A DNA stretch of 41,586 nucleotides from Streptacidiphilus anmyonensis (lineage in GTDB: Bacteria; Actinomycetota; Actinomycetes; Streptomycetales; Streptomycetaceae): the NCBI RefSeq assembly GCF_000787855.1, contig NZ_BBPQ01000074.1, positions 1 to 41,586 on the forward strand, given 5' to 3'. Each line of letters opens with the position of its first letter. Position 1 is the stretch's first letter. The position numbers and the translations under genes were made by a program. Shown piece by piece: positions 9,166-31,406 of this stretch. The notes under the pieces were generated by a model. That model was not told where the DNA came from. It was given only the letters and a program-made list of their open reading frames with translations, and made no database searches.

Positions 9166-9464
9166 CATAAAACCCAGTTAAATTGCCTTGACTTCCGGGC
9201 GTCGCTTTGACCATGATGTTCCCCTGGTGGTCGATGGCCCTGGTTCTCGAACCGGCTTCAACGACCGCCGACGTGGTGGTCGACGCTTCACGCGTCAGGA
9301 TCGCCGGCGGCACGGGGGCGAGGCTCGGGGGCGGGCTTCGGAGTCAGGGCTGGGGCACTCCGCCGATGCGATCGTTTCCCGTCTGAGCGCGGGCCTGACG
9401 GCTCGCGCAGCGGTGGCGCACGCCCCGATGGCGCATGCCCTGCCGCCCTCCGGAGGAATCTCCG
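9166..9464 (+). promoter_or_regulatory. Intergenic region with promoter for the GT2/deacetylase operon
   Basis: This is 299 bases without a gene. The first 30 bases are A/T-rich. TTGACT (9188-9193) and CATGAT (9212-9217), 18 bases apart, form a plausible promoter for the forward glycosyltransferase operon and imply a leader of about 240 bases. The near-repeat GGTGGTCGA occurs twice (around 9227 and 9272). GGAGGA at 9452-9457 is the ribosome site of the first gene. No terminator for the upstream gene is obvious. Confidence 0.45.
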
Positions 9465-10313
9465 ATGAGCACCGGCAAGCCCCTGACCCTGCCCCCCATC
9501 CCCCGCACCGTCGCCGACGGCGTCCCCGCACGCCGGGTCACCGACCGACCGCGGACCAGATCCACCGTCAGCCTGGTCATCCCCGCGTACAACGAGGCGC
9601 GCAACATCCCCTGGGTCTTCCAGGAGATCCCACGGTGCGTGGACGAGGTGCTGCTGGTGGACGGCGACTCCCACGACGCGACGGAGCGGATGGCGCGGCT
9701 GTGCCGTCCTGCCACCCGCATCCTGCGGCAGGACGCGCCGGGCAAGGGCAGCGCGCTGCGCACCGGCTTCCTCGCGGCCCGCTGCGACTACGTCGTGATG
9801 CTGGACGCGGACGGCAGCATGTGGCCCGGGGAGATCCCGCACTACATCCACTTCCTGGACAACGGCTACGACTTCGTCAAGGGCTCGCGCTACATCGCGG
9901 GCGGCGGCTCCCAGGACCTCACGCCGATCCGCTCGTTCGGCAACAAGGTGCTGGTCGCCGCCACCAACCTGCTCTACGACGCGGGGCTGACCGACCTCTG
10001 CTACGGATTCTGCGCGTTCCGGCGCAACTTCCTGGACGAACTCGACCTGCACGCGCCCGGGTTCGAGATCGAGACGGAGATGGTGGCGCACGCGCTGCGC
10101 TCGGGCCTGCGGGTCGCCGAGGTCCCGAGCCTGGAACTCCCCCGCCGCGCCGGCCGGTCGCACCTGCACGCGATCTCGGACGGCCGACGCGTGCTGCGTA
10201 CCCTGCTCGCCGAACGTCCCCGCTCCACCGGGGGCGACCGAGGGCCGGTCGGCGCGGCGGCGGGAACGGGGTCGGCTCCCACGGGGGCGACTCCCACGGG
10301 GGCGGCCCGATGA
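9465..10313 (+). CDS. GT2 family glycosyltransferase (dolichol-P-mannose synthase-like)
   Basis: A 282-residue GT-A fold transferase, first gene of a four-gene operon. It has the usual nucleotide-sugar features: SLVIPAYNEARNIPWVF near residue 30, VDEVLLVDGDSHDAT near 60, and the metal-binding D114-A-D116 in VVMLDADGSMWP. Single-domain GT2 proteins of this size usually transfer a sugar to a polyprenyl phosphate or to a growing glycan. The tail after about 255 is a Gly/Ala/Thr/Pro-rich low-complexity stretch. No transmembrane segments are obvious, so it is a cytosolic or peripheral enzyme. The start at 9465 has GGAGGA 7 bases upstream. The stop overlaps the next start as ATGA. Confidence 0.92.
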   Translation: MSTGKPLTLPPIPRTVADGVPARRVTDRPRTRSTVSLVIPAYNEARNIPWVFQEIPRCVDEVLLVDGDSHDATERMARLCRPATRILRQDAPGKGSALRTGFLAARCDYVVMLDADGSMWPGEIPHYIHFLDNGYDFVKGSRYIAGGGSQDLTPIRSFGNKVLVAATNLLYDAGLTDLCYGFCAFRRNFLDELDLHAPGFEIETEMVAHALRSGLRVAEVPSLELPRRAGRSHLHAISDGRRVLRTLLAERPRSTGGDRGPVGAAAGTGSAPTGATPTGAAR

Positions 10314-11719
10314 GAGGCCACGGCCGGCGCTCCGCAGCAGCCTGTCCCTGCCTTGCCGCACGCGATCTGCGCTACACCCCCGTCAGGGTCGTGGAACTGG
10401 AGCTGGACCGGCCGCAGGAGCTGCGCGCGCCGGGCGGCCTCGGTCCGGTCGTCCCGAGCGGACGCGTGTCGGCGCTGGTGCGACTGCACGGACACCCGCT
10501 CGGGCTGGTCCAGGCCGACGGCGCACCCGGCGATCCGGCCGGGCTCCGCCGGGCGCTGGTCGCCGCCGCCCATCGTGAACTGCCCCTGCCCGAACAGCGA
10601 CACCACCTCGACCTCGCGGCGCCGCTGCCCTGGCCCGATCCGACCGTCAGCGTCGTCGTGGCCACCCACAACCGGCCGCAGTCGCTGCGCCGCTGCCTGG
10701 ACTCGCTGCTGCGCACCCGCTACCCGGGCCTGGAGGTGCTGGTCGTCGACAACGCGCCCGCCACCGACGAGGCCCGGCGCCTGGTGCTGACGGGCTATCC
10801 GCCCCAGGTGCGCTACCTGCGCGAGCCCGTGCCGGGCCTGGCCCGCGCGCACAACCGCGGTCTGGTGGCCGCCCACGGCGCCGTCGTGGCCTTCACCGAC
10901 GACGACACCATGGTCGACCCGCGCTGGCCGAGCGCACTGGCCGAGGCCTTCGCAACGGACCGTTCGGTCGGCTGCGTCACCGGCCTGATCCTTCCGGCCG
11001 AGCTGGAGACACCCGCCCAGGCCGCGCTGGAGGCGCACGGCGGCTACGCCAAGGGCTTCGCCCTGCGCCGCTGGTCGATGCGCGAGCGGCCGCCCGGCGA
11101 GCCCCTCTTCCCGTTCGCCGGCGGCCGGTTCGGCTCCGGCGCGAACATGGCCTTCCGAGCCTCCCTGCTGCGCCGGCTCGGCGGCTTCGACCCGGCGACG
11201 GGCACCGGAACCCCGGCGCGCGGCGGCGACGACCTGCTCGCCTTCTTCCGGGTGCTGACCTCCGGCGCGTCCCTGGTCTACCAGCCCGACGCGATCGTCT
11301 GGCACCACCACCACCGCACCCCCGACGCCGTCCCCGCGCAGGCGTTCGGCTACGGCGTCGGCTTCGGCGCGTATCTGACGGCCGCGGTCCGACACCAACC
11401 CGGCGCACTGCCCGCCCTGTTGAAAGTCCTGCCGCGTGGCGTGGGCATGGCCCTGCGGGGCGCCGGCCGAGACGCCGCGCAGGGACCGCCGCTCGCCGGG
11501 GCCAGCCCCGCCGAGCTGGCCCGGCTCCAGCTGCGCGGGCTCGCCTACGGTCCGATCGGCTACCTGCGCAGCGCGCTCCAGGACAGGTACGGCGCGGGCC
11601 GCGCCCACGGCGGCAGCAGGAGCGAGGCCAGGGACAGGAGCGGAGCAGCGGCCCGATGTCGGGGCCACCTGACGAGGACGAAGGCGGTGAGACCCGGTGG
11701 ACGCAGCCCATGGCACTGA
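10310..11719 (+). CDS. GT2 family glycosyltransferase
   Basis: A 469-residue protein. The first about 100 residues are a non-catalytic N-terminal region. The GT2 domain begins near 112 (VSVVVATHNRPQSLRRCL) and has the triple Asp D197-D199 (AFTDDDTMVDP) for metal and nucleotide-sugar binding. It also has the acceptor-side motif GANMAFRASLLRRLGGFDP near 280 and a conserved GGDDLLAF near 305. The C-terminal 150 residues are Ala/Arg-rich and may be membrane-associated. The start overlaps the stop of the previous gene (ATGA), which indicates coupled translation. It is probably one of several sugar-adding steps in the locus. The sugar and linkage cannot be read from sequence. Confidence 0.9.
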   Translation: MRGHGRRSAAACPCLAARDLRYTPVRVVELELDRPQELRAPGGLGPVVPSGRVSALVRLHGHPLGLVQADGAPGDPAGLRRALVAAAHRELPLPEQRHHLDLAAPLPWPDPTVSVVVATHNRPQSLRRCLDSLLRTRYPGLEVLVVDNAPATDEARRLVLTGYPPQVRYLREPVPGLARAHNRGLVAAHGAVVAFTDDDTMVDPRWPSALAEAFATDRSVGCVTGLILPAELETPAQAALEAHGGYAKGFALRRWSMRERPPGEPLFPFAGGRFGSGANMAFRASLLRRLGGFDPATGTGTPARGGDDLLAFFRVLTSGASLVYQPDAIVWHHHHRTPDAVPAQAFGYGVGFGAYLTAAVRHQPGALPALLKVLPRGVGMALRGAGRDAAQGPPLAGASPAELARLQLRGLAYGPIGYLRSALQDRYGAGRAHGGSRSEARDRSGAAARCRGHLTRTKAVRPGGRSPWH

Positions 11720-12785
11720 CCCCGGATCCGGGTCCCGCCTCTCGGTGGTCGTCTGCTGCTACACCACCGACCGCTGGGACGACATCCGCGCCGCGATCGC
11801 CTCCGTGGCGGCCCAACAGCCGCCCGTACGGGAGACCGTGATCGTGGTGGACCACTGCCCCGGCCTGGAGCGGCTGGCCCGGGAGCACCTGGCCGACGAC
11901 GCGGACGGGTCGTGCGTACGGGTCGTGGCGAACGCGGAACGCCGCGGCCTGTCCGGCGCACGCAACACCGGGGCGGCCGAGGCCCGCGGGGACGTGGTGG
12001 CGTTCCTGGACGACGACGCCACCGCGGAGCCGGGCTGGGCGGCCGCGATCCTGGCCGGATACGCGGACGCGGCCGACGTGCTGGGCGTCGGCGGCGCCGT
12101 GCTGGCCCGCTGGGAGCGCGGCCGACCCGGCTGGTTCCCGCCCGAGTTCGACTGGGTGGTCGGCTGCTCCTACCGGGGCGGACCGGAAACCGCCGCGCCC
12201 GTGCGGAACTTCATCGGCGCGAACATGTCCTTCCGCCGCACGGCCCTGCGGTCGGCGGGAGGCTTCCGCATCGACCTGGGCCGGGTCGGCACCCGGCCGC
12301 TGGGCTGCGAGGAGACCGAGCTGTGCCTGCGGCTCACCACCTCCCGGCCCGACGCGACGCTACTGCACCAGCCGGACGCGGTCGTGCGCCACCACGTGCC
12401 GCCGCAACGCGGCACCTGGCGCTACTTCCTGACCCGCTGCTACGGCGAGGGCCTGTCGAAGGCCGCGGTCACCGCCCGCGCGGGCGCCACCCGCGCGCTC
12501 GCCAGCGAGCGCGCCTACCTGCGCCGGACCGTCCCGCGCGCCGTCACCTCGGCGTTGCGTCCCGGCCCGCAGTGGTCTCCGCGCCGTGCCCTGGCCCTGG
12601 TCGCGGGCGTCTCCGCGACGGTCCTCGGCTACGGCGCCGGGACGCTGCACCGGCAGACACTGCACCGGCTGACACCGCCCCAGACGCCGAAGTCCGCCGC
12701 CGAGAGCGCCCCGGCCCGGGCGCCGCGTGCCGCCGCGACCCCGGCGCTGCTGTCCCCGGGGCGGGAGCAGGGCGGTGGCGCATGA
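11697..12785 (+). CDS. GT2 family glycosyltransferase
   Basis: A 362-residue transferase with the same architecture as the preceding gene's catalytic part: LSVVVCCYTTDRWDDIRAAI near residue 15, D105-D107 (AFLDDDATAEPGW), then GANMSFRRTALRSAGGF near 180 and the acidic pair CEETELCLRL near 205. The C-terminal region is Ala/Pro-rich. The GTG at 11697 is chosen because it is the first in-frame start before the GT2 core, and it overlaps the previous gene by 23 bases. A GTG at 11686 is in another frame. The stop overlaps the deacetylase start (ATGA at 12782-12785). Confidence 0.88.
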   Translation: MDAAHGTDPGSGSRLSVVVCCYTTDRWDDIRAAIASVAAQQPPVRETVIVVDHCPGLERLAREHLADDADGSCVRVVANAERRGLSGARNTGAAEARGDVVAFLDDDATAEPGWAAAILAGYADAADVLGVGGAVLARWERGRPGWFPPEFDWVVGCSYRGGPETAAPVRNFIGANMSFRRTALRSAGGFRIDLGRVGTRPLGCEETELCLRLTTSRPDATLLHQPDAVVRHHVPPQRGTWRYFLTRCYGEGLSKAAVTARAGATRALASERAYLRRTVPRAVTSALRPGPQWSPRRALALVAGVSATVLGYGAGTLHRQTLHRLTPPQTPKSAAESAPARAPRAAATPALLSPGREQGGGA

Positions 12786-13582
12786 CCGTGGTGCCGGTGC
12801 TGCTCTACCACTCCGTCAGCGACTCACCGCCGGAGTGGATCGCACCGTTCACCGTTCCCCCCGCCACGTTCGCCGAGCAGCTGGACCGGATCATCGACGC
12901 GGGCCTGACCGTCGTCTCGCTGCGCCGTCTGGTCTCGGCGATCCGCGGCGGCCGGGCGCTGCCGCCCCGGCCCGCCGTGCTGACCTTCGACGACGGCTTC
13001 GCCGACTTCTACTGGAGCGTCGCCCCGCAGCTCCAGTCCCGCGAGCTGCCCGCCACCCTGTTCGTCACCACGGGCGCGATCCACCCGCCCGGCGGCTCCC
13101 CGACCGGCAGCCTGCTGGGCCCCGCCGACATGCTGAACTGGCGGCAGGTCGCGGGCCTGGACGCGGTCGGGATCGAGATCGGCGGCCACTCGCGCACCCA
13201 CCCCCAGATGGACACCCTCACCAGCCGCGCGCTGTGCGAGGAGGTGGACCTGTGCAAGCAGGAGCTGGAGGAGGCCCTCGGCCACTCCGTCAGCAGCTTC
13301 GCCTACCCGCACGGCTACTCCAGCCCGGCGGTGCGCCGCAAGGTGCTCCGCGCGGGCTGGGACAGCGCCTGCGGCGTCGCCAACGCCTTCAGCTCCACCT
13401 CCGACGACACGCTGCGCCTGGCCCGCCTCACCGTCCGCGCGGACACCTCCGCCGCGACCTTCCAAGCCTGGCTCGACGGCCGCGGCGCCCTCACCGCCCC
13501 CTTCCCCGACCGCTGGTCCACCGTCGGCTGGCGCGCCTACCGCCGCCTCCGCGCCCGCCTCGGCCTCTCCCTGCCGCGCTGA
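12782..13582 (+). CDS. Polysaccharide deacetylase, NodB/CE4 family
   Basis: A 266-residue deacetylase, expected to remove N- or O-acetyl groups from a glycan or sugar intermediate. NodB motif 1 is TFDDGF with the D70/D71 pair. Motif 2 is GGHSRTHP with the metal ligands H136 and H140. Motif 3 is SFAYPHG near 177. All metal ligands are present, so it should be active. It has no signal peptide or membrane anchor, unlike secreted peptidoglycan or chitin deacetylases. This fits action on a cytosolic lipid-linked intermediate made by the three upstream GT2 enzymes, or export by another route. It is the last gene of the operon, and a convergent gene begins 22 bases later. Confidence 0.93.
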   Translation: MTVVPVLLYHSVSDSPPEWIAPFTVPPATFAEQLDRIIDAGLTVVSLRRLVSAIRGGRALPPRPAVLTFDDGFADFYWSVAPQLQSRELPATLFVTTGAIHPPGGSPTGSLLGPADMLNWRQVAGLDAVGIEIGGHSRTHPQMDTLTSRALCEEVDLCKQELEEALGHSVSSFAYPHGYSSPAVRRKVLRAGWDSACGVANAFSSTSDDTLRLARLTVRADTSAATFQAWLDGRGALTAPFPDRWSTVGWRAYRRLRARLGLSLPR

Positions 13583-14196: not shown

Positions 14197-15093
14197 CTAG
14201 TGCTGCCACACCCGGACCCACTGCACCTGCATCTGGGCCTGGTTCACGTCGGCCGGCGGGGCGAAGGGGTAGCCCACGGCCAGGTTGAGGATCATCTCCA
14301 TGGGCAGTTGGGGGATGTCCGCCGGAGTGTCGATGTGCCAGCGGGCCACGCCGTCGACGTACCAGGTCACGGAGTTCTGCTCCCAGTCGACCGCGAACAC
14401 GTGGAACCCGGCGGGGAAGTTCACCGGCCCGTACCAGTGCTGGCGCTGCGTGGGCGTGCCGTCGGCGGCCTGCCAGTGGAGGGTGTTCTGCACCAGCTGG
14501 GTGGTGCCGCTGAACTCGGCGATGTCGATCTCCTGCGGCACGTCGTGCTCGGCCGGGAGCAGCCAGAAGGCCGGGAACATGCCTCCCTGCGGCGGGATCT
14601 TGATCGCGGCGGCGAAGTAGCCGTGCAGGAAGGTCTCCCGGGGCTGCGCGTCCCAGTTGTCGCGCCCGGTGGTGACCATGCCGGAGGCCCACGGGTAGGT
14701 CTTGCCGTCGCTGCCCTTGGTGGGCGTGCGGGTGGCTTCCAGGTTCAGCGTGCCGTCGGACACGGAGACCTGGCCGGGCAGGTACCACTCCAGTTCGTGG
14801 TTGCCCGCGTTGGTGCAGCCGGAGACGTTCCAGTCGTAGCAGGTGGCCCACTGTGCGGTGTCGAGCGAGCCGCTGCTGAAGTCGTCGGAGAAGGTGAGGT
14901 GCCACGGGCCCGGCGCCCCCTTGGCCGGGGCGGGCGAGCTCACGGAGGCGCTGGGATCGCCGGCGCTCGGCACGCCGACGGCGTTGCCGGCTCCCGGGGA
15001 CGTGCCGCCGCAGGCGGCCGTCACTCCGAGGAGCAGCGCACCTGCCGCCAGCCGAAGCAGGTGCGTCGAACCTGACCGCCGTATCGCACGCAT
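14197..15093 (-). CDS. GH16 beta-glucanase-like lipoprotein
   Basis: A 298-residue secreted glycoside hydrolase. The signal peptide has a basic start (MRAIRRSG), a leucine-rich core and a lipobox VTAAC near residue 23, so it is probably a lipoprotein. A Ser/Pro/Ala linker precedes the beta-jelly-roll catalytic domain (about 60-298). The nucleophile and acid/base motif EIDIAEF (E187, D189, E192 approximately) is intact, with the conserved GYFAAAIKIPPQGGMFPAFW region just before it. GH16 enzymes cut beta-1,3/1,4-glucans or galactans. In a polysaccharide locus such an enzyme commonly trims or releases the locus's own polymer. GAGGAGG precedes the ATG at 15093. It follows the membrane-protein gene by 13 bases. 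Confidence 0.93.
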   Translation of the reverse strand: MRAIRRSGSTHLLRLAAGALLLGVTAACGGTSPGAGNAVGVPSAGDPSASVSSPAPAKGAPGPWHLTFSDDFSSGSLDTAQWATCYDWNVSGCTNAGNHELEWYLPGQVSVSDGTLNLEATRTPTKGSDGKTYPWASGMVTTGRDNWDAQPRETFLHGYFAAAIKIPPQGGMFPAFWLLPAEHDVPQEIDIAEFSGTTQLVQNTLHWQAADGTPTQRQHWYGPVNFPAGFHVFAVDWEQNSVTWYVDGVARWHIDTPADIPQLPMEMILNLAVGYPFAPPADVNQAQMQVQWVRVWQH

Positions 15094-15106
15094 CCGGGCC
15101 ACCTCC

Positions 15107-16900
15107 TCAGCCGACCACGAAGTGGTACACGGACGCGTCGGCGTTCTGGTACACCAGTGTGAATCCGGGGGTGGCGGAGGCGGCATCCGCCAGTCGGGCG
15201 ACGGTGTCGCCCGGCAGTTCGCCGGTCAGCCGCAGCTCCCACGTCTGTGCGCGGCTGAGGATCAGGTAGCCGGGCGTCCCGGGCTTCAGGAAGCCGACGC
15301 TGTCGCGCAGTCCGGCGATCGGGTCGGCGACCAGCAACTCCTCGGTGCTGCCGGGCTCGGCGACGAGGCGCACCTCGGGATGGTCCTCGTAGCGTTCGTC
15401 GATGCCCGGCACCGCCCCGGTGACGCCCACGATGACCGAGCCCGGTGGCGCGTTGTCGATCGTCCACTGCGCGGCGGCGACCTCGCCGGAGGTGTAGTAG
15501 TTCATGGCCTCCTTGCTGTCGTAGCCGAAGAAGAGTCCGGCCAGCAGGGCGAGCAGCAGCGCCGGCACGGCGACCTTCCGCAGCCTCGACCACCGCGCCG
15601 GAGCCGCCTCGTCGGACTCCGGCCGCCGGGGCCGCAGCAGCGCCGCGATCAGGAACGCCGCGAAGGGAAGCGAGAACAGGTAGGCCCGGAACAGCATCTC
15701 GCCGCCGTAGGCGTTCGCGGCCAGAAGCGGCAGGGGCGAGAAGAACAGCCAGACCACCGGCGTGCGGCGGGTCCAGGGCCGCAGCACCAGAGCGGCGAGG
15801 GCGAGCAGGAACACCGCGGCGGACAGGCCCCGGTCGATCCAGCCGACGAGCATCTGCTCGGGCGCGGCCGTGCCGAGGCTGCGGAAGCCCGAGGCCACGT
15901 TGCCGTCCGGGCTGGCCAGCGACGACACGAAGGAGCCGAGGTTCTTCGAGAGGTAGGGCCGGGCCACGGTGGCGCCCCAGACGGCCGTCAGGACGACCGA
16001 GCCGATGAGCGGCGGCAGCACCACCCGCCTGTTGCGGCGCGGCACAGCGAGCAGCGCCAGACTGCTGATCACCATGAGCGGGGTGAGCTGGTGCGAGCAG
16101 ACGATGGCCGCGTCGAGCAGCAGCACGACCACCAGCGACCAGCCCCAGCGCACGCCGCGCTCGGGACGGTCCGGCGGGTATCCGGGGGGCGGCTCCCCGG
16201 GTGCTCTCGCCCTGGCCGGAAGCCGTCGCAGCACCAGGGCCATCAGCCAGGCGTAGAGGATGAAGGCGAACGCCTGCGGAGAGAAGTAGTCCTGGCCGAC
16301 CCAGGAGGTGGAGTAGAAGATCCACACGCCCGCCCAGACGACCCGCCGGTCGGTGGTGACAGAACGGAACATCCACAGCAGCGGCACCAGCAGCAGCGCG
16401 TTGACGAACGGCGGCGCCCAGGACGCGTAGCCCACCGGTGAGGACAGGCCGAGGACCTTGAGCACGCCGACGTTCGCCAGGAAGAATCCGGGCCACTGGT
16501 TGTAGATGTCCAGGTCCCCGGCGTGCGGGACCACCCCGTCGTGCCGCAGCATGGCGTCGACGATCGCGACGTGCTTCCAGGCCCACGCATAGCGCAGAGT
16601 CGGGTAGAGCAGCGTCGGCGTCGCGTGGATGACAGCGATGAGCCCGAGCACGTAGCCGGCGAGCCAGCCCTGGCCGAGGCGCGGTTCCCGGAGGGTGAGC
16701 ACGAAGCCGATCGTCAGCAGGACGACGGCGACCCAGTAGAGCGGTGTCAGGACCTGGAGCAGCCCGAGGGCGCCCATGCCGGACAGGTCGACCTGACGCA
16801 GCGACACCAGCCACAGCGCCATCGCCGTGGGCAGCGGTGCGCAGGGCGCGTACCGCCGCAGCCCCACGCCCACCGCGCTCACGCTCACAGCCCCGGCCAT
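15107..16900 (-). CDS. Polytopic membrane protein, GT-C glycosyltransferase-like
   Basis: A 597-residue protein with about 11-12 hydrophobic spans (residues about 20 to 470) and a C-terminal extracytoplasmic domain of about 115 residues, starting after FFGYDSKEAMNYYTSG. The acidic pair in GDLDIYNQWPGFF lies in an early outer loop, as in GT-C enzymes that take sugars from polyprenyl phosphates. I therefore suggest a lipid-linked sugar transferase or polymerase-like role, without family proof. A Wzy-like polymerase is the main alternative. The ATG at 16900 has GGAGG seven bases upstream and overlaps the upstream phosphotransferase gene by 16 bases, so the two are coupled. Frames extending upstream to 17941 are antisense-shadow sequence. 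Confidence 0.8.
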   Translation of the reverse strand: MAGAVSVSAVGVGLRRYAPCAPLPTAMALWLVSLRQVDLSGMGALGLLQVLTPLYWVAVVLLTIGFVLTLREPRLGQGWLAGYVLGLIAVIHATPTLLYPTLRYAWAWKHVAIVDAMLRHDGVVPHAGDLDIYNQWPGFFLANVGVLKVLGLSSPVGYASWAPPFVNALLLVPLLWMFRSVTTDRRVVWAGVWIFYSTSWVGQDYFSPQAFAFILYAWLMALVLRRLPARARAPGEPPPGYPPDRPERGVRWGWSLVVVLLLDAAIVCSHQLTPLMVISSLALLAVPRRNRRVVLPPLIGSVVLTAVWGATVARPYLSKNLGSFVSSLASPDGNVASGFRSLGTAAPEQMLVGWIDRGLSAAVFLLALAALVLRPWTRRTPVVWLFFSPLPLLAANAYGGEMLFRAYLFSLPFAAFLIAALLRPRRPESDEAAPARWSRLRKVAVPALLLALLAGLFFGYDSKEAMNYYTSGEVAAAQWTIDNAPPGSVIVGVTGAVPGIDERYEDHPEVRLVAEPGSTEELLVADPIAGLRDSVGFLKPGTPGYLILSRAQTWELRLTGELPGDTVARLADAASATPGFTLVYQNADASVYHFVVG

Positions 16901-17988
16901 CGCACCGCCTCCGCGAGCACCGGTGCGACCGCGCGGCGGTACCAGATCCGGCTGCGCCCGTAGCGCGGCGACTTGGAGACGTTCGCGGCGACGTGCCAGA
17001 GCCAGGCCAGCAACACCACGGTCGGGTCGGCGGCGTCGCCCTCGCGTGCCGCGCCGGACGCCGAGGCGAGCAGGGCCGCGTCGCCGGGGGCGAGTGCGCC
17101 CGTGCGCAGGACGTCCGCGACGACCGGGCCGAGGTCGGCCCCGGTCCGCAGGCAGCGCAGCATCAGCACGAAGGTACAGGCGTCGACGGCCACCGGTCCG
17201 TCCTCGCGGCCCTCCCCCCAGTCGATGACGCCGGTGACCCGGCTCGCCCGCTCGTCCAGCAGCACGTTCCCGGGGTGGTAGTCGCCGTGGGTCCAGCCGA
17301 CGGCGAGCACGCGCCCGTCCAGGCCGCGGCCGATCCGCTCGCCCACGGCGGCCAGCCCGGCCGCGCCCGCTCCCGTGCGGCACCAGGGGATCCGGTCGCG
17401 CACGGCGGCGAGCGGCTCGGTCACCCACGCCTTGACGCGACGGTCGGTGCAGGGCTCGGACCGCGCGGTGGCGCGTCCCAGCGCGGCGAGGGCGTCCAAG
17501 GCCAAGTGCGCGACGTGGTCGGCGGCGACGCGGCCGTCGGTGTCGCGGCGGGCTCCGGCCGGTGCCGAGACCAGCACCGTGCCGGCGTCGCGGCCGGGCA
17601 GCAGGCTCTGGGTGATCAGCGGTCGCGGGGCGTCCAGTCGCCGGTCGAGCGGCGTCGGTACCAGCCGCCGCCACGCGCCGAGGCGCTCCTCGTCCTGGAG
17701 GCGCGTCAGCACGTCCCATTCCCGCGCGAGCGCGGCGGCGGCCGACGCGCTGTAAGCGTGCTTCAGCACGACGCCGCCTTGGCCCGGCAGGTCGAGCCGC
17801 ACGACGAGCACGTCGGCGAGACCCTCTCCGCAGGGGTGTGCGAGCGGAGGATCGTCGGGCCGGTACTCCCGTGCCAGCCGGCGGGCGAGCCGCTGTTCGA
17901 GCGGCCCCCGCAGCACCGCCGACCGTCGCACGGGCAGCCACCCGCGCAGCTGTTCCCCGAGCGTCACCGCCTGTCCCTCAGCGCTCAT
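16885..17988 (-). CDS. APH/choline-kinase-type phosphotransferase
   Basis: A 367-residue protein of the aminoglycoside-phosphotransferase superfamily. An N-lobe (about 40-125) has a lysine in VVLKHAYS that could be the ATP lysine. The C-lobe has the catalytic loop HGDYHPGNVLLDE near 233 (Asp and Asn present) and the Mg-binding Asp in VTGVIDWGEG near 252. The kinase core is complete, so it is probably active on a small hydroxyl or sugar substrate. The start at 17988 overlaps the 3' end of the 997-residue gene by 11 bases, and its own 3' end overlaps the membrane-protein gene. This places it firmly inside the glycan operon. It could phosphorylate a precursor whose phosphate is removed or exchanged by its HAD/PRTase neighbour. 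Confidence 0.85.
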   Translation of the reverse strand: MSAEGQAVTLGEQLRGWLPVRRSAVLRGPLEQRLARRLAREYRPDDPPLAHPCGEGLADVLVVRLDLPGQGGVVLKHAYSASAAAALAREWDVLTRLQDEERLGAWRRLVPTPLDRRLDAPRPLITQSLLPGRDAGTVLVSAPAGARRDTDGRVAADHVAHLALDALAALGRATARSEPCTDRRVKAWVTEPLAAVRDRIPWCRTGAGAAGLAAVGERIGRGLDGRVLAVGWTHGDYHPGNVLLDERASRVTGVIDWGEGREDGPVAVDACTFVLMLRCLRTGADLGPVVADVLRTGALAPGDAALLASASGAAREGDAADPTVVLLAWLWHVAANVSKSPRYGRSRIWYRRAVAPVLAEAVRWPGL

Positions 17989-20971
17989 CGGGCCGCACCC
18001 CCGCCCGTCCGCCTGCCGCCACGCCGTGCACCGCCCCGCCATGCACCGCCATGCCATGCGTGCGAACGCCGTGCCCGGCCCTGCCATGCACCGAGATGCC
18101 ATGCCCCGACATGCCATGCACCGCCACCCCGTGCACCGCCATGCTGTGCGCGGCCGTCAGGTCCGCGTTCGCCAGGGCCAGGCGGGCGAGTCGGATCACG
18201 GCGCCGCGGCGGCCCGCCTCCGGGAGCGCGAGGACAGCGAGCACCGCTCGCGTCTCGTGCGTCAGCGCGGGCGGGCGGCAGATCGGGCAGTGCCCCGGGC
18301 GGTGGCCGAGGAGCGCGGCGACCGCGTCGGCCAGGCCGGCCTGGTAGGCGCCGGGGGCGACGTGGATGTGGCCCTCCGCCAACTCACGTGCGTGCGAGGG
18401 CACCACGCCATTGCGGGACCAGCGCAGCAGCGGCAGGTCGGCCGGACCGTCGCCGACGGCGAGCACGGGCGGCTCCACCGGTTCGCCCATCAACGCGAGC
18501 AGGGCTCGCACGCCCTCCGCCTTGTCCGCTCCGTGCGGGACGAAGTCGGTCTGCGCGTCGCCCGGCACGGCGTCGAAGAGCCGACCGAACCGGCCGTCAC
18601 GCAGCAGGTCGGCCGTCTCCCGCTCGGGCAGGCCGGTGCGCCGCCCGTCCGCGTGTCGGAGGGAGGCGCGCACGCACCAGTGCGACAGCGGGTCGGTCTC
18701 GTGGCCGGGCAGGGAGGCGAGCAGGAGGGCCAGTCCGCCGTCGCCCTCGCCGCGCCGCGCGTCGTCGAGGACCACGCGGACGCGGCCGCTGCCCGCGTCG
18801 ACGCAGGCAGCGCCGTACTCCCCCACGCCGCCCGCCAGCCCGTAGGCGGCGCAGCGGTCGCGCACCTCCGCGAGGGAGCGGCCGGTGGCCAGCAACGGCC
18901 GGTAGCCGTGGGCGCGCAGGGCGCGCAGCGCGGTGACCCCGAGCGGCGAGGCGGCGGGGAAGCCGAGCACGTCGGTCTCCAGCACGCCGTCGACGTCGAG
19001 CACGCACCAGCCGCGCGGCTCGGCAGCGGGCTCCCGCTCGTCGAGGTCGGCCAGCAACGCACCGGCGAGGAACCGCTGCGCGGCCCTGGCCTGCGCTCTT
19101 CGCGCGCGGGCGCGCAGATCCGGTCCGTCACCTGCGCCGTCGCCCGTGCCCGAGCGGGCGCCCGCGCCGCCCGCGAGCCGCACCGCGTTGCGGGCCTGGA
19201 CCAGCTGGAACAGGAACCAGCGCGCCGGGTCGACACCACGTCCGGTCAGCTCGGTCCAGTGGCGCAGCAGTTCCTGCTCGGCCTCGTCGTCGGCAGGGCC
19301 GTGGGCGACGGCCCCGGCCAGGTCGTAGACGGCGTCGTAGCAGGCCAGGTCGAGGCTGGCGAAGCCGCCCTCGGCCCAGTCCAGCTTGCGGTGGCCCCGG
19401 TCGCCGTCCCCGGCCCAGTGCTCGGGCGCGGTGCGCCCGTCGACGAGGCAGGGACGGGAGGCCGACGCGAGCAGGTGTCGCGTCAGCGGCTGGACGAGCG
19501 CGGGCCGCAGCAGCACGGCGGCCCGGCCGAGCACGGGGGCGAGGGTCCGGGCGGCGGACTCCCAGACGGGGTCCCGCCCGCCCAACCGGCCGCTGCGGTC
19601 CTCGTGCAGCGGCAGCCGGCGCTCGCGCTCGGCGAGGTAGACGGCGACCTCGCGCGGCGGGACGGGCTGCGGGTCACAACGCGGCGGCCCGTCGGGCGGG
19701 CGGCCCCGGTCGCGGAGCAGCACGCCGTCGGCGAACCCGCGCACGCGCGGGACGAGCCCGTCGAGCGCCGCCGCCGATTGCGGCGCGAGCCGTCCGAAGC
19801 GGCCGACGCCGGTCCACTCGGCGTACAGGGCGAGTTCCTCGCGGGTGCCGTCCTCGGGGTGTTCGACGACCGCGGTGACCGGCACGCCCAGGTGTCCGGT
19901 GCGGGCGACCGGCCCGGGCTCGGCGGCCCGCACGTCGAGCACCCGGACGCCGTCGAGCAGGCGCGGCAGCAGCTCCGCGAGCGCGCGCGGCGCGAGCAGG
20001 GAGGGCACGTGCCAGGCGGTCCCGAGCAGGGTCACGCAGTCGTGGCGGGCCAGCCGTTCCGGGACGACGGGCGGGTCCTCGAAGCAGGCGAAGACGGGGA
20101 CGATCGCGGCCGCCGGGACCCCCCGGCGCTCCAGCGCCGCCGCCACCTCGGCGAGCGCGCCGCCGGTGACGGGCGGGTCGTCGGTCAGCAGCACGCGTGC
20201 GGCGGACGCCGCGCCCGGGGGCGGCGGGACGCCGGGCCGGGTGGTCGCCACGGCCACGCGGCGGTAGCCCAGGCCGCGCAGGGCGGCGGCCAGGAGCGGC
20301 GCGAGGTAGCTGCCGGAGGTCCGGACGCCGAGCACCAGCAGCGGCGGTTCGCGGGCCGGGTACCGCGCGGCGTAGCGGCGGGCCAGCTCGGCCGCGTCGG
20401 CCGGGTGCTGGTCGAAGCTGCGGAAGCAGGCGGGCGGGCGGAGCAGGTCCCGTCCCACGAGCCGGGTGGCGAAACCGGGACCGGCCAGGACCCGTCCGGC
20501 GGCCACGGCTCCGAGGTCGGCGCCCATGACCAGGCCGGCGAGCGCCAGCGTCAGGCGCGTGGCCTCGCTCGCCCAGGCGCGCAGCGCGCGGGTCGGCGGG
20601 GCCGCGCGGTATCCCGCACCGGCCGCGTCGAGCGCACGGGAGGCGAGCCGGAGCGCGGGGCCGCGTGCGGCGCGCAGCGCCGGAGGCATCGCGGGGCCGT
20701 CGCCGCCGTGGCGGGCCAGGTGGACGAGCAGGCGTCGCGGCGGCCAGGCGACGGCGTCGATCCGGTCCTCGACGATCTGCGAGGCCCCCGCCGCCCACAG
20801 GAACGCGTCCAGCCACTCGTCCGAGGCGAGGGCGGAGCACAGGCCCGCCAGGGCCTCGTCCAGCGTCGCGAAGGGGTCGGCGACCGCCGCGCCCGCACCC
20901 GCGTCCCCGAGGGCGACCCCGGGCGCGGCCTCGCCCGTCGGGCTGGCCTCGCTTCTGGTCGGGCTCATCAT
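17978..20971 (-). CDS. Multidomain PRTase / kinase-like / HAD protein with His-Gly repeat tail
   Basis: A 997-residue protein. Residues 1-190 are an Ala-rich helical region that I do not recognise. Residues about 205-300 are a type I phosphoribosyltransferase-like fold: LLVLGVRTSGSYLAPLL near 210 and the PRPP-loop signature VLLTDDPPVTGG near 260. Residues about 440-620 recall a kinase C-lobe (KLDWAEGGFASLDLACYD), but the HGD catalytic loop is replaced by VDGRTAPEHW, so ATP transfer is doubtful. Residues about 653-880 are a HAD phosphatase (VLDVDGVLETD near 656, LLATGRSLAEV, GDGPADLPLL near 839). CPIC near 893 could bind zinc with nearby His. Residues 945-984 are eight XXHGX repeats. Two adjacent ATGs (20971, 20968) follow CGGGAG. 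It sits between the flippase and the phosphotransferase genes. It probably makes or edits a ribosylated or phosphorylated metabolite, which is inference. Confidence 0.82.
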   Translation of the reverse strand: MMSPTRSEASPTGEAAPGVALGDAGAGAAVADPFATLDEALAGLCSALASDEWLDAFLWAAGASQIVEDRIDAVAWPPRRLLVHLARHGGDGPAMPPALRAARGPALRLASRALDAAGAGYRAAPPTRALRAWASEATRLTLALAGLVMGADLGAVAAGRVLAGPGFATRLVGRDLLRPPACFRSFDQHPADAAELARRYAARYPAREPPLLVLGVRTSGSYLAPLLAAALRGLGYRRVAVATTRPGVPPPPGAASAARVLLTDDPPVTGGALAEVAAALERRGVPAAAIVPVFACFEDPPVVPERLARHDCVTLLGTAWHVPSLLAPRALAELLPRLLDGVRVLDVRAAEPGPVARTGHLGVPVTAVVEHPEDGTREELALYAEWTGVGRFGRLAPQSAAALDGLVPRVRGFADGVLLRDRGRPPDGPPRCDPQPVPPREVAVYLAERERRLPLHEDRSGRLGGRDPVWESAARTLAPVLGRAAVLLRPALVQPLTRHLLASASRPCLVDGRTAPEHWAGDGDRGHRKLDWAEGGFASLDLACYDAVYDLAGAVAHGPADDEAEQELLRHWTELTGRGVDPARWFLFQLVQARNAVRLAGGAGARSGTGDGAGDGPDLRARARRAQARAAQRFLAGALLADLDEREPAAEPRGWCVLDVDGVLETDVLGFPAASPLGVTALRALRAHGYRPLLATGRSLAEVRDRCAAYGLAGGVGEYGAACVDAGSGRVRVVLDDARRGEGDGGLALLLASLPGHETDPLSHWCVRASLRHADGRRTGLPERETADLLRDGRFGRLFDAVPGDAQTDFVPHGADKAEGVRALLALMGEPVEPPVLAVGDGPADLPLLRWSRNGVVPSHARELAEGHIHVAPGAYQAGLADAVAALLGHRPGHCPICRPPALTHETRAVLAVLALPEAGRRGAVIRLARLALANADLTAAHSMAVHGVAVHGMSGHGISVHGRAGHGVRTHGMAVHGGAVHGVAAGGRAGVRPDER
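18020..18139 (-). repeat. In-frame 15-bp tandem repeat (8 copies) encoding XXHGX pentapeptides
   Basis: Eight contiguous 15-base units encode AVHGV, AVHGM, SGHGI, SVHGR, AGHGV, RTHGM, AVHGG and AVHGV. The array starts right after AAHSM, which looks like a ninth degenerate unit (18140-18154). Copies have diverged in DNA while keeping His-Gly at positions 3-4, so the peptide pattern rather than the DNA has been preserved. Confidence 0.9.
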
Positions 20972-21071: not shown

Positions 21072-22403
21072 TCACGTCGGCGGCGGGGGTGTCGGGGCCG
21101 GCAGCCACCAGTCGCGCCGCCACAGCAGCACCGCCGCGACGATGCTTTGCCCGATCAGCCACGCCGCGCCGGCCCCGTTGATGCCGAGGACCGGGAGCAG
21201 CAGCTCCGTCAGGCCGAGGACGAGCACAGCCAGCGCCGCGAGCACGCCCACCACGACGCGCATCCGGCGCCTGGCCCGCGACAGCGCGACGACGGTCGTA
21301 TTGAGCAGGTTCGGCAGCGCGGAGAGAGTGAGCAGCCAGAGCACGACCAGGCCGTGGCTGGCGTACTCGGGGCCGAACAGCCGCAGCGCCCAGGGCGAGA
21401 CGGCCAGGACGACCACGACCGCGAGCGTCAGCACCCGCCCCGCGTGGCGCAGCACGCGGCGGTAGTCGGCCAGCCGCGTGACGTCCCGTGCGGACTCCAC
21501 GACCAGCGAGTAGCCCATGTTGACGCTGAAGGCGTAGAGGGCCAGGGGCACCAGCCAGGCGAGCGAGAAGTACGCGCTGTCCGCGGCTCCGAGCCGGTTG
21601 AGCACGATGACGGGCGGCAGGTTGACGGCGGCGAGCCAGCACATCGCGCCCAGGTAGTCGGCCGACACGTAGCCGAGCGTGAGGCGGGAGCTGTCCGCGG
21701 CCGCCTGGGGGGCGGCGCGTTCGTGCCGCGGCAGCGCGCGGGCGAAGACGAAGACGTTGGTGAGCGCGAGCGAGAGCGCGAGTCCGACCATCCAGGAGAC
21801 GAGGATGCCGCTCGTCGCGCCGATGGCGGCGAAGACGGCCAGCAGCCCGATCTTCTCGACCGAGAACAGCCCGTTCTCCAGCGCCACCCAGTCGGCCCGG
21901 CGCAGGCCGGTGAGCACGCCGTCCTGGAGGTTGAAGATGGCGTAGCCGCCCGTCGCGAGGACGAAGAAGGCGCCCAGGCTCCAGGTGTGCAGGAAGTCCA
22001 GCCCCGGCGAGAGATGCGGGATCAGCAGCACGAACCCGGCGGTGAGCAGCAGCGTGACCGTGCCGGCCACCAGATAGGCCCGGCCGACCAGCCGCCCGGT
22101 GCGCGGACCGGCCGAGGGCACGAAGCGCACCATCGCGTTGGCCAGGTTCAGCTGGCCGACCCCGCCGAGGAACATCATCGCGGAGACGGCGGCCGTGTTC
22201 CGGCCGACCTCGTCGGGGGTGTACCAGTGCGCGCCGAGAGCCCAGTAGAGCGCGCCGAACAGCGATGTCAGCGCGGAACTGAGGGTGAGCAGGTGCCCGT
22301 TGCGCAGCAGCGGGTCGTACCGGCCGGCCGCGCTCAGGAGCGCCCTGCTGCGCGACCGCAGCGATCGGGCTGCGGCCGACGTGTTGGCTCCGGTGCTCAC
22401 CAC
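21072..22403 (-). CDS. Wzx-like polysaccharide flippase (MVF/MOP superfamily)
   Basis: A 443-residue membrane protein with about 12 hydrophobic spans and the pattern of oligosaccharide flippases: an early GRNTAAVSAMMFLGGVGQLN segment and a later LVPLALYAFSVNMGYSLVVE segment. It would move lipid-linked glycan units from the inner to the outer face of the membrane. The start is GTG at 22403 or the adjacent GTG at 22400, with GAGGAGGGAG about 10 bases upstream. It lies between the acyltransferase gene (86 bases upstream) and the 997-residue gene (100 bases downstream), all on the reverse strand. Confidence 0.88.
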   Translation of the reverse strand: MVSTGANTSAAARSLRSRSRALLSAAGRYDPLLRNGHLLTLSSALTSLFGALYWALGAHWYTPDEVGRNTAAVSAMMFLGGVGQLNLANAMVRFVPSAGPRTGRLVGRAYLVAGTVTLLLTAGFVLLIPHLSPGLDFLHTWSLGAFFVLATGGYAIFNLQDGVLTGLRRADWVALENGLFSVEKIGLLAVFAAIGATSGILVSWMVGLALSLALTNVFVFARALPRHERAAPQAAADSSRLTLGYVSADYLGAMCWLAAVNLPPVIVLNRLGAADSAYFSLAWLVPLALYAFSVNMGYSLVVESARDVTRLADYRRVLRHAGRVLTLAVVVVLAVSPWALRLFGPEYASHGLVVLWLLTLSALPNLLNTTVVALSRARRRMRVVVGVLAALAVLVLGLTELLLPVLGINGAGAAWLIGQSIVAAVLLWRRDWWLPAPTPPPPT

Positions 22404-22489: not shown

Positions 22490-23557
22490 CTACGAACTGC
22501 GGGCACCGCGCAGACCGGTCACGACGCGCGCCGCGCCCGCCTCCAGCCTGCGCCTGAGCTCCTCGATGCGGGTCAGCGGCAGGCGCTCGACACGGCAGTC
22601 GAGCACGGTCCGAGGCACGGCCCCCATGGCCTCCTTGTACGATTCGAGCCCGGCGACGCCCCCCGACATACCCATGCTGTAGGAACGGCAGCCCTGCTCG
22701 CAGGCGTCCTCGATGGCCACCCGCTGGAGCAGCAGGCTCGCCCGCAGGGAGGCGAACCGCTTCACGGCATAGCTGCGGAACGAGACGGCGTGGTTCCGGT
22801 AGACGAACGTGACCAGCCCCGCCACCGGCTCGCCCTCGTAGCGCGCCAGCCAGATGCGGCAGGCGCCGTCCAAGGAACCCGCCAGTGCCTGGAACATCGG
22901 CAGGGGTTCCCGACGACGGGCCAGAGCCGCCGCGAGGGACCAGGGAAGGCCCGACTTCTCCGCCCGCTCGGCCGACCACTGCAGGTACAGGTCGTAGAAC
23001 GCGGCGACCGACCGCTCGGACGCGTCGTGTTCGACGGTGAGGCCCGCACGCTCGGCCTTGTGCACGTTCTTCCTGGTGGAGGCGTGGAACCGGTGACTCC
23101 AGACCTCGGAGAAGCCGCCGTCCAGGTCCAGCACGTGCACGCGGGAGCGGATCGCCTCGACGCCGCGCACCAGGCCCTGCTCCCAGCAGTCGGTCACGTC
23201 GTGCATGGCCGAGACCCGGATTCCGGCCGATCGCTCACCGAGCAGGTCGGAGAGGACGAGCGCCACATCGGACGGTCTGAGTCCGCCGGTCGCCAACAGC
23301 CCTCCGGGACCCATGCGGTGCGGGTACGCGGCCTCGAAGGCAAGCCCCGGCACGAGGCTGCGGCGGACCAGGGGCAGCAGCAGGTTCCGCCCTTCCCGGG
23401 TCACGTAGAGCCGGCTGGCGTCCCGGGCGCCCGTCAGCCGGACCACCGCGTCGAACCAGGCCGGGGTCTGGAAGACCGACGCGCCCGGATCGCTCGCCAG
23501 CAGGGCGTCCCAGGCGGACCGCGGCGCTGGGCTGACAACCTGTGGTGTGGTGGGCAC
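22490..23557 (-). CDS. FemAB/CelD-like GNAT acyltransferase
   Basis: A 355-residue protein with two tandem GNAT-like halves, as in FemAB/CelD proteins of exopolysaccharide loci. Landmarks are SVFQTPAWFDAVVRL near 28, HASTRKNVHKAERAGL near 160, the acyl-CoA or tRNA-binding-fold segment EGEPVAGLVTFVYRNHAVSF near 255, and LLQRVAIEDACEQGCRSYSMG near 290. It probably adds an acyl or aminoacyl group to a sugar. The GTG at 23557 is supported by GGAGG six bases upstream. It heads the reverse-strand glycan operon and is divergent from a paralogue of almost the same length (23683-24747). Confidence 0.82.
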   Translation of the reverse strand: MPTTPQVVSPAPRSAWDALLASDPGASVFQTPAWFDAVVRLTGARDASRLYVTREGRNLLLPLVRRSLVPGLAFEAAYPHRMGPGGLLATGGLRPSDVALVLSDLLGERSAGIRVSAMHDVTDCWEQGLVRGVEAIRSRVHVLDLDGGFSEVWSHRFHASTRKNVHKAERAGLTVEHDASERSVAAFYDLYLQWSAERAEKSGLPWSLAAALARRREPLPMFQALAGSLDGACRIWLARYEGEPVAGLVTFVYRNHAVSFRSYAVKRFASLRASLLLQRVAIEDACEQGCRSYSMGMSGGVAGLESYKEAMGAVPRTVLDCRVERLPLTRIEELRRRLEAGAARVVTGLRGARSS

Positions 23558-23682
23558 GCGGCCTCCGGCGGAAGACGTTCGGGTGGATTGACCCTATGCC
23601 ATAAACGGATATTCCGGGCTTATCAGGCATGATCGTAGGGGAGCCGCCCGGCTCCCGCCCGACGTCCGACGGGAGCGGAACG
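23558..23682. promoter_or_regulatory. Divergent promoter region of the two acyltransferase genes
   Basis: This 125-base gap has an A/T-rich core at about 23587-23640, including TTGACC (23588-23593), ATAAACGGATATT and CATGAT (23629-23634). Both divergent genes must start transcription here, but I cannot pair the boxes at standard spacing. GCATAAAC-like sequence recurs in reverse orientation near 22455-22465, before the flippase gene, and could be a shared element. Confidence 0.35.
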
Positions 23683-24747
23683 ATGCGGCCCTGCGGCGTC
23701 GAGGTGACCAGTCCCGCGCCCCGCGACCTGTGGTGGGAGTTCCTCGGCCGGGACGACCTCGCCCTGGCCACCCAGACCCCGACGTGGCTCGACTGCCTCT
23801 GCGACGCCTATCCGCTGGAGGACGCGAGCCGGCTCTACCGCTTCTCCAGCGGGCGGCGGCTGCTGGTGCCGATGGTGCGCCGCCGAGGCGGGCTGGGCCG
23901 CCTGGTGCGGGAGGAGTCCTGGCCCGGCTGGGGCGTCGGCGGAGCCGTCGTCCCGGACGGCGCGCCCGACCCGCAGCAGGCGCGTCTCGTCCTCGCCGAC
24001 CTCGCGGCGCGGCCCGCGCTGCGCGTCGCGGTCCGGTTCAACCCGCGCACACCCCCGGCCGAGTCCGTCTGGGAGGCGACCGCGCCGGACGGGTTCGCGA
24101 CCGTCGAGCGCACCACGTACCTGACGGACCTGTCCGCGGGCTTCGACGCCGTCTGGTCCCACGGCTTCCACCCGTCCGCGCGCCAGGGCGTGCGGCGCGC
24201 CGAGCGCGCGGCCGTGGAGGTGACGGTGGACCGCACCGGGGGTCTCGTACCGCAGTTCCAGCGGCTCCACCGGGAGTCGGTGGCGCGCTGGGCCGAGCAG
24301 CAGCACGAGCCGCTCGCGCTGGCGCGCTGGCGCCAGCGGCGCGACGAGCCGCCGCGCCTGCTGGAGGCCGTGGCGGAGCGCTTCGGCGACGGCTGCGCGG
24401 TCTGGCTGGCGAGCGTCGCGGGGCAGCCGGCCGCTGCCATCGTGGTGCTGCGCCACGGTACCCACGCCAAGTACTGGCGCGGGGCCATGGACCGCGACCT
24501 GGCCGGGCCGGTCCACGCCAACCAACTGCTGCACCGCCTCGCTCTCGAGGACGCGTGCACGGCCGGCTGCCTCGTCTACGACATGGGCGACGCCCGGCCC
24601 GGCTCCTCGCTCGCCCGCTTCAAGGAGAACCTCGGCGCGCGACCGGTCGCCTCCCCCGCGTACTACCGCGAGCGGCTGCCGCTCACGGCCGCCGACCGCC
24701 GCCTGCGGGCGGCGGTCAAGCGGGTCATCGGATTCAAGGACGCCTGA
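23683..24747 (+). CDS. FemAB/CelD-like GNAT acyltransferase (paralogue)
   Basis: A 354-residue paralogue of the divergent gene. Shared features in order: SPAPRDLWWEF at the N-terminus, TQTPTWLDCLCDAYPLEDAS, HGFHPSARQGVRRAERA near 165, VAGQPAAAIVVLRHGTHAKY near 260 and LHRLALEDACTAGCLVYDMG near 290. The ATG at 23683 is preferred over that at 23629 because it aligns with the paralogue's N-terminus and has GGGAG seven bases upstream. The role is probably acyl or aminoacyl transfer to the locus's glycan. The two copies could modify different positions. It is monocistronic: the next forward gene is 395 bases away. Confidence 0.8.
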   Translation: MRPCGVEVTSPAPRDLWWEFLGRDDLALATQTPTWLDCLCDAYPLEDASRLYRFSSGRRLLVPMVRRRGGLGRLVREESWPGWGVGGAVVPDGAPDPQQARLVLADLAARPALRVAVRFNPRTPPAESVWEATAPDGFATVERTTYLTDLSAGFDAVWSHGFHPSARQGVRRAERAAVEVTVDRTGGLVPQFQRLHRESVARWAEQQHEPLALARWRQRRDEPPRLLEAVAERFGDGCAVWLASVAGQPAAAIVVLRHGTHAKYWRGAMDRDLAGPVHANQLLHRLALEDACTAGCLVYDMGDARPGSSLARFKENLGARPVASPAYYRERLPLTAADRRLRAAVKRVIGFKDA

Positions 24748-28482: not shown

Positions 28483-28534
28483 GCGGGGCCTTTCAGAGGT
28501 GCGGTGTCTGAGGTGCGGTGCGGGGATGCTGCCC

Positions 28535-28590
28535 GGGTCTCGGTCAGGTACCGGGTCTCAGTTCAGGTACTGGGTCTCAGTTCAGGTACT
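28535..28590. repeat. 19-bp tandem repeat spanning the dihydropyrimidinase stop codon
   Basis: GGGTCTCAGTTCAGGTACT occurs at 28553-28571 and 28572-28590. A first copy one base shorter and slightly different lies at 28535-28552. The copy at 28572-28590 contains the gene's last codons and its stop (28577-28579). The other two lie downstream of the stop. Confidence 0.9.
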
Positions 28591-29983: not shown

Positions 29984-29996
29984 AGCGTCCCCTTCC

Positions 29997-30064
29997 TCAC
30001 AGTGCCTCCTCGATCACAGTGCCTCCTCGATCGCGGGGCCTTCTCGATCACAGGGCCTCGTCCA
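29997..30064. repeat. 17-bp tandem repeat (4 copies) spanning the aminotransferase stop codon
   Basis: TCACAGTGCCTCCTCGA occurs at 29997-30013 and 30014-30030, with variants at 30031-30047 and 30048-30064. The last variant contains the final five codons (DEAL region) and stop of the aminotransferase gene. The other three fill the gap to the dihydropyrimidinase gene. Confidence 0.9.
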
Positions 30065-31400: not shown

Positions 31401-31406
31401 CGCCGT

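What the first reader, a model, noticed from the sequence alone, without database searches (positions are those of the whole stretch)
17978..20971. PRTase + kinase-like + HAD fusion protein inside a glycan export operon
One 997-residue protein joins a PRPP-loop phosphoribosyltransferase (VLLTDDPPVTGG), a kinase-like C-lobe that has lost the HGD loop, a HAD phosphatase and a CPIC motif. It is translationally coupled to an intact APH-type kinase and flanked by a flippase and a membrane GT. PRTase plus HAD plus kinase combinations are known in nucleoside-like metabolite pathways linked to Ter stress systems. Finding one embedded in a polysaccharide locus suggests a phosphoribosyl-derived precursor or decoration. 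This is my best candidate for an undescribed system.
Basis: partly seen in the sequence, partly recalled or inferred. Interest (0 to 1): 0.75.

Follow-up and report, generated by a model that had tools for sequence, protein, structure and literature searches.

The report
Ribose-adding fusion enzyme in glycan operon
An actinomycete carries one large protein that joins a ribose-phosphate transferase, an odd kinase-shaped domain and a phosphatase inside a sugar-polymer gene cluster, probably to add ribose to the polymer by an unusual route; the chemistry has known parallels, but the build of this protein differs from them.

Summary
Minus-strand ORF 17978-20971 encodes 997 residues: helical N-domain, type I PRTase fold with an intact DD PRPP motif, kinase-fold domain, intact HAD-IIB phosphatase, and an invariant HxxxxCxxC tail motif. 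The kinase fold is two-lobed, not only a C-lobe, and matches no Pfam family in this protein. 218 homologues were found; the motifs hold across 119 aligned rows. Of 35 loci with over 5 kb on each side, 28 hold homologues of this window's flippase, GT2 or membrane-GT genes, against 1 of 20 control stretches. Fusions to GT2 and to the flippase exist. A sister cluster keeps a truncated paralogue: 12 of 12 lack the DD pair, kinase C-lobe and HAD. Best reading: a PRPP-dependent ribofuranosyltransferase that moves ribose-5-phosphate to a lipid-linked glycan precursor and then removes the phosphate. It works like published gPRT+PRP enzymes, but its phosphatase is of another HAD class and it has an extra kinase-fold domain: a new variant of a known kind. 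The Ter link is not supported. Acceptor and product are unknown.

The parts
17978..20971 (-). 997-aa fusion protein Q: helical N-domain, PRTase, kinase fold, HAD-IIB, HxxxxCxxC tail
20456..20863 (-). helical N-terminal domain, residues 37-172; one hydrophobic segment at 140-158
   Evidence: AF2 secondary structure; hydropathy
19988..20440 (-). type I PRTase domain, residues about 178-328, PRPP motif D264-D265
19709..19945 (-). beta-rich N-lobe of the kinase fold, residues 343-421; G388, G390, G393 in 119 of 119
19052..19657 (-). helical C-lobe, residues 439-640; D511, D546, D550 in 119 of 119
18302..19021 (-). HAD-IIB (Cof-type) phosphatase, residues 651-890, catalytic motifs intact
18278..18307 (-). 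GHRPGHCPIC tail motif; H890, C895, C898 in 119 of 119; possible metal site (inference)
18016..18144 (-). 15-bp tandem repeat, 8.6 copies, in the C-terminal tail, largely low-confidence in the model
16885..17988 (-). APH-type kinase, HGDYHPGN intact; likely start overlaps the Q stop by 11 nt
15107..16900 (-). 597-aa membrane protein, 8 hydrophobic segments, GT-C-like by inspection only; no Pfam match
14197..15186 (-). GH16 family protein with one hydrophobic segment at 43-61
21072..22403 (-). Wzx-like flippase, named by inspection: no significant Pfam match itself; homologous to the flippase part of fusions, two of which a source calls O-antigen/teichoic acid export membrane protein
22490..23557 (-). 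FemAB/GNAT-like transferase
23629..24747 (+). second GNAT-like transferase
9435..10313 (+). GT2, polyprenyl-P-sugar-synthase-like by inspection
10400..11719 (+). GT2 (start approximate)
11697..12785 (+). GT2; homologues of it are fused to Q in five listed proteins, one of them from Actinospica
12701..13582 (+). polysaccharide deacetylase (start approximate)

Best explanation
Q is a cytoplasmic, PRPP-dependent glycan ribofuranosyltransferase. [quoted passage not shown] The fused HAD-IIB phosphatase then removes the 5-phosphate, making the step irreversible. The Wzx-like protein exports the product. The kinase-fold domain, which lacks the canonical HGD and a conserved DFG Asp, most likely binds or positions the acceptor; the separate APH protein, sometimes fused to the flippase, does a true but unknown phosphorylation. 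Shown here: folds (by prediction), intact catalytic motifs, linkage and fusions. Inferred: donor, acceptor, order of steps and product.
For: PRTase fold with D264 in 118 and D265 in 116 of 119 rows; HAD residues D659 118, D661 119, K817 117, D841 118, D845 119 of 119. Loci: homologues (E 1e-5) of the flippase, GT2 or membrane GT in 28 of 35 loci with over 5 kb on both sides, against 1 of 20 control stretches; at E 1e-20, 27 of 35. 6 of the 7 exceptions carry other genes that I read as glycan genes, named by Pfam. All 8 listed homologues over 1,100 aa are fusions: GT2-Q in five, Q-flippase in three; locus L034 adds a GT2-Q. In the sister flippase/GT2 cluster 12 of 12 paralogues lack the DD pair and the HAD together, as expected if phosphoribosyl transfer and dephosphorylation are one pathway. 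Precedent: gPRT+PRP enzymes do these two steps from PRPP (PMC11127046, abstract section and passages; PMC12096443 and PMC10299916, passages).
Against: No acceptor, product or ribose-containing polymer is known to me for any carrier. The PRTase resembles nucleotide-metabolism PRTases; no glycan PRTase appeared among the 50 rows shown (not decisive). The HAD is not of the known PRP cap type. The sister cluster retains a PRTase-like domain without its acids, so this domain can have a non-catalytic role there. The kinase fold is unexplained. In 21 of 63 loci none of the tested families lies within 1.5 kb on the same strand, some because contigs end. The control stretches come from only five related genomes.
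Confidence: 0.55

Rival explanations
1. Three-component variant: Q makes polyprenyl-phosphate-ribose (PRTase on the lipid phosphate, then HAD), the flippase turns it outward, and the GT-C-like membrane protein uses it to decorate the finished polymer.
For: Q, flippase and GT-C-like membrane gene lie in one gene row; Q-flippase fusions exist. The published Citrobacter system has HAD+PPPRS, a MATE flippase and a GT-C. Q has one hydrophobic segment, 140-158, that could touch the membrane.
Against: The known synthase is a membrane UbiA-family protein; Q has a type I PRTase fold and no array of membrane segments. Q is fused to a GT2 in five listed proteins, which suits repeat-unit assembly better.
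Confidence: 0.15
2. PRPP-sensing or scaffolding protein: the PRTase and kinase folds bind ligands and regulate or organise polymer assembly, like PyrR or PurR, with the HAD as the only enzyme.
For: Closest folds include PyrR; the sister cluster keeps a DD-less PRTase domain; the kinase fold lacks canonical catalytic residues.
Against: The DD pair is nearly invariant in Q, which a mere scaffold would not need, and it is lost together with the HAD in the sister paralogues.
Confidence: 0.15
3. Nucleoside-like metabolite pathway of the Ter type.
For: PRTase + HAD + kinase is reminiscent (recalled).
Against: PRTase_2 matches 1 of 57 members weakly and nothing in this genome at E 0.001; TerD is on other contigs; neighbours are mostly glycan genes. 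Ter genes were not searched for at the other loci.
Confidence: 0.05
4. The kinase fold is a real kinase (loop PxxxDG, loosely like the inositol polyphosphate kinase loop), so Q transfers, dephosphorylates and rephosphorylates to leave a phosphosugar or phosphodiester decoration.
For: D511 119 of 119 and K529 113 of 119 rows; the only PDB profile match, E 1.1, is an inositol polyphosphate multikinase over that loop. The parallel with the inositol-kinase PxxxDxKxG loop is recalled.
Against: E 1.1 is not significant; the residue at the DFG-Asp place (531) is D in only 82 of 119 rows; no conserved beta-3 Lys was seen.
Confidence: 0.1

Closest known systems
gPRT + PRP bipartite ribofuranosyltransferases (O antigens; Hib Bcs3 CriT+CrpP; C. 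jejuni Cj1432)
   Same: PRTase-type and HAD-type domains on one polypeptide in a surface-glycan locus; PRPP as presumed donor; fusion to other glycan enzymes
   Different: Q's HAD is class IIB, whereas CrpP has a mostly helical cap right after motif I and only the first motif-I Asp; Q has a kinase-fold domain and an HxxxxCxxC tail; order is PRTase-kinase fold-HAD
Three-component pentofuranose systems (UbiA-type PPPRS + HAD, MATE flippase, GT-C GT136)
   Same: HAD, flippase and GT-C-like gene together, PRPP as source
   Different: synthase fold: type I PRTase here, membrane UbiA family there
Type I PRTases PyrR, OPRT, APRT
   Different: glycan gene context, fused domains, helical N-domain
APH/choline-kinase fold
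   Same: overall two-lobed fold of residues 343-640 by model and Foldseek
   Different: no Pfam family in the window's domain; hhalign of residues 425-645 to the neighbouring APH family gave probability 0.1; HGD absent

Membership tests
Type I phosphoribosyltransferase superfamily | PRTase fold | tested here: met
Type I phosphoribosyltransferase superfamily | acidic pair in the PRPP loop | tested here: met
   D264 118 of 119, D265 116 of 119
gPRT+PRP ribofuranosyltransferases | PRP-type HAD with helical cap directly after motif I | tested here: not met
   motif I D659 and motif II TGR at 696-698 are 37 residues apart, no room for a cap of about 100 residues (CrpP cap 393-490); best matches are Cof/IIB-type HADs
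gPRT+PRP ribofuranosyltransferases | homology to gPRT/CriT | tested here: inconclusive
   not among the 50 rows shown; no gPRT sequence was compared directly
gPRT+PRP ribofuranosyltransferases | transfer of Rib-5-P from PRPP to a glycan, then dephosphorylation | not testable with these tools
   needs biochemistry
HAD-IIB (Cof-type) phosphatases | HAD catalytic motifs and IIB-type fold | tested here: met
   (below NCBIfam's own cut-offs for the named subfamilies)
APH-type kinases | HGD catalytic loop | tested here: not met
   replaced by a PxxxDG-like loop with invariant D511
APH-type kinases | two-lobed kinase fold | tested here: met
   AF2 secondary structure and Foldseek hits 3csv, 8bi6, 9fsg; aligned range not printed, assigned to 343-640 by elimination
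Ter-linked PRTases (PRTase_2; link recalled) | PF15609 match and Ter gene context | tested here: not met
   1 of 57 members at 0.014; no match in the genome; TerD on other contigs

The most novel reading that the evidence does not exclude
Q is a three-active-site machine with a new glycan chemistry: the PRTase adds ribose-5-phosphate, the HAD clears it, and the kinase-fold domain, seen here only inside this architecture or its pieces, is a new enzyme with its own residues (G388/G390/G393, D511, K529, D546) that phosphorylates or activates the ribosylated intermediate, giving an unreported ribose-phosphate polymer in Actinobacteria and Chloroflexi.
Probability: 0.12. Interest if true: 0.8.

Novelty: new variant of a known kind. 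Interest (0 to 1): 0.55.

Why it matters
In the papers I saw, PRPP-dependent ribosylation of glycans was worked out in Gram-negative O antigens and capsules. This family would extend it, with a different phosphatase and a new kinase-fold domain, to Actinobacteria and Chloroflexi, and it makes a testable prediction: ribofuranose in their polymers. It also offers a natural experiment, since a sister cluster lacks the PRTase acids and the phosphatase together.

Tried and rejected
Kinase domain by sequence: hhalign of residues 425-645 (the C-lobe part; the N-lobe was not in that profile) to the neighbouring APH family gave probability 0.1. Pfam at E 1 matched 0 families in the window's domain and 8 families in one member each among 55. 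A PDB profile search gave one chance-level match, E 1.1. The domain-only protein search found 4 proteins among 8000 scored; two of them (P0008, P0123) also carry the HAD, the other two were not examined; that search is word-limited. The same for the PRTase part gave 1 protein, not examined.

Glycan PRTases (Bcs3) did not appear among the rows shown; that excludes nothing. Methylmalonyl-CoA mutase tops the Foldseek list of the domain model (TM to target 0.13-0.15, rmsd about 18 in the first four rows); rejected as a probable artefact. Ter link tested and rejected for this genome. Defence: PADLOC gave no match at E 0.01 for Q, APH or flippase. Literature: 8 searches; in the listings I saw no paper on this architecture. 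Most subscription papers are not held, and the original ribofuranose paper was not found in full.

Cautions on counts. The 63 loci include some that look near-identical (L050, L051, L084) and many short contigs. The 20 control stretches come from five related genomes, not matched by phylum, at round coordinates rather than randomised; besides the one GT2 hit, one control stretch held a GH20 hit, a family not counted. Genes in loci were called by a simple GC-frame script or as stop-to-stop ORFs, so fusion ends are approximate. L057, one of the 7 exceptions, had its neighbours read by eye and one scanned, an APH. Residue counts use 119 of the 122 proteins on file: the wrong-strand P0001, the duplicate P0003 and the 573-aa P0008 were dropped.

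Full report
Setting. The window is contig C80 of a 9.4 Mb genome in 153 contigs. The closest named relatives of Q are from Streptacidiphilus neutrinimicus and S. melanogenes, 81% identical. Q is the ORF 17978-20971 on the minus strand.

Conservation. Over 119 rows the PRPP acids are D264 118 and D265 116; the HAD residues are D659 118, D661 119, K817 117, D841 118, D845 119; the kinase-fold residues are G388, G390, G393, D511, D546, D550 119 each, K529 113, and D531 only 82; H890, C895, C898 are 119 each. So PRTase and phosphatase look active. The kinase fold has no HGD and the DFG Asp is not fixed, yet it has its own invariant set. No Pfam family matches the window's domain, and hhalign of residues 425-645 against the neighbouring APH family gave probability 0.1.

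Distribution. 218 homologues passed E 1e-3 among 8000 scored, 120 listed. A scan of one genome per species gave 63 loci, mostly from Actinobacteria and Chloroflexi (by record titles). In 296 evenly drawn genomes of the phylum, 2 matched at E 1e-30: the window's own, and one other that matched only profile positions 583-901 with an internal stop; the tool scored only 3 candidates in each genome listed, so this rarity is rough. Among 14 genomes of the genus, its own included, 5 have a match over nearly the whole of Q (G000, G002, G004, G006, G008) and 11 have the short paralogue.

Context. In the window the minus-strand order is GNAT, flippase, Q, APH, membrane protein, GH16; three GT2 genes and a deacetylase lie on the plus strand. 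Over all 63 loci, within the DNA held and at E 1e-5, homologues were found of GT2 (36, 34 and 21 for the three queries), flippase 29, APH 29, membrane GT 22, GH16 19, each GNAT 13, deacetylase 7, and GH20 0. With over 5 kb on both sides, 28 of 35 loci have a flippase, GT2 or membrane-GT homologue, against 1 of 20 control stretches. Six of the seven exceptions have UDP-sugar dehydrogenase, Polysacc_synt, Wzz, GT4, TupA or DegT matches by Pfam, which I read as glycan genes; for L057 nothing of the kind was shown. On the same strand and within 1.5 kb, 42 of 63 loci have at least one of the tested families.

Fusions. The 8 listed homologues over 1,100 aa are GT2-Q (5) and Q-flippase (3); L034 is a further GT2-Q; flippase-APH, with the HGD loop in each, in 12 ORFs; GT2-membrane GT in L050, L051, L056 and L065; APH-GT2-membrane GT in L055. 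These link GT2, Q, flippase and APH into one process.

Natural experiment. Eleven genomes of the genus and one of another genus of the family hold a Q paralogue in a stretch that also has a flippase homologue in 12 of 12 and GT2 homologues; in the two that I read gene by gene, cobalamin-type genes lie beside it (by inspection). The paralogue ends after the PRTase or after a remnant of the N-lobe, has no HAD, and in 12 of 12 cases lacks the DD pair; one of them keeps a single D. In one (L099) it lies in the same 20 kb as a full Q. Joint absence of the PRPP acids and the phosphatase fits a coupled transfer-then-dephosphorylation pathway. It also shows that the remaining domain has some non-catalytic use.

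Comparison with the known. PMC11127046 (abstract section read whole, other passages) describes Ribf transferases made of a gPRT domain and a HAD phosphatase, and the UbiA-based three-component system. PMC10299916 and PMC12096443 (passages) report the same two steps for the Hib capsule and for Cj1432; PMC11231755 (passages) gives Klebsiella O4 and O7 examples. Q shares the logic. It does not share the phosphatase class: CrpP's cap follows motif I directly, while in Q 37 residues separate D659 from the motif II region, with no room for that cap. Whether its PRTase is homologous to gPRT was not settled. I therefore file Q as working like these enzymes, not as a member.

Verdict. Most likely Q is a ribofuranose-adding enzyme of a lipid-linked polymer pathway, with an unexplained kinase-fold domain; confidence 0.55.

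Noticed in passing
L040, L041, L042, L047, L050, L051, L054, L061, L065, L070, L075, L081: Flippase fused to an APH-type kinase with an HGD loop, in 12 stop-to-stop ORFs. A flippase-kinase fusion looks unusual to me and its role is unknown.
   Followed up: partly
G000:C152:180368-181297 (L088:9311-10633): A sister flippase/GT2 cluster beside cobalamin-type genes (by inspection) holds a truncated PRTase paralogue without the PRPP acids.
   Followed up: yes
window 18016-18144: 15-bp tandem repeat, 8.6 copies, coding a VHG-rich tail; two near relatives shown have diverged versions.
   Followed up: partly
L027: Streptacidiphilus melanogenes keeps Q, GH16, deacetylase and GT2 genes, but no flippase, APH, GNAT or membrane-GT homologue was found around Q; deletion or assembly gap.
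   Followed up: no
L086:9599-12309: An Ignavibacteria MAG has Q-like sequence in two adjacent ORFs, the break apparently in the kinase-fold region; real split or frameshift not decided.
   Followed up: no
window 27469-32294: Luciferase-like, amidohydrolase, class III aminotransferase and carbon-nitrogen hydrolase genes on the minus strand; looks like reductive pyrimidine catabolism (pathway recalled).
   Followed up: no
window 6331-9165 and 25143-27371: A PAS-GGDEF-EAL protein and a GH20 hexosaminidase with a lectin-like domain flank the glycan locus.
   Followed up: no
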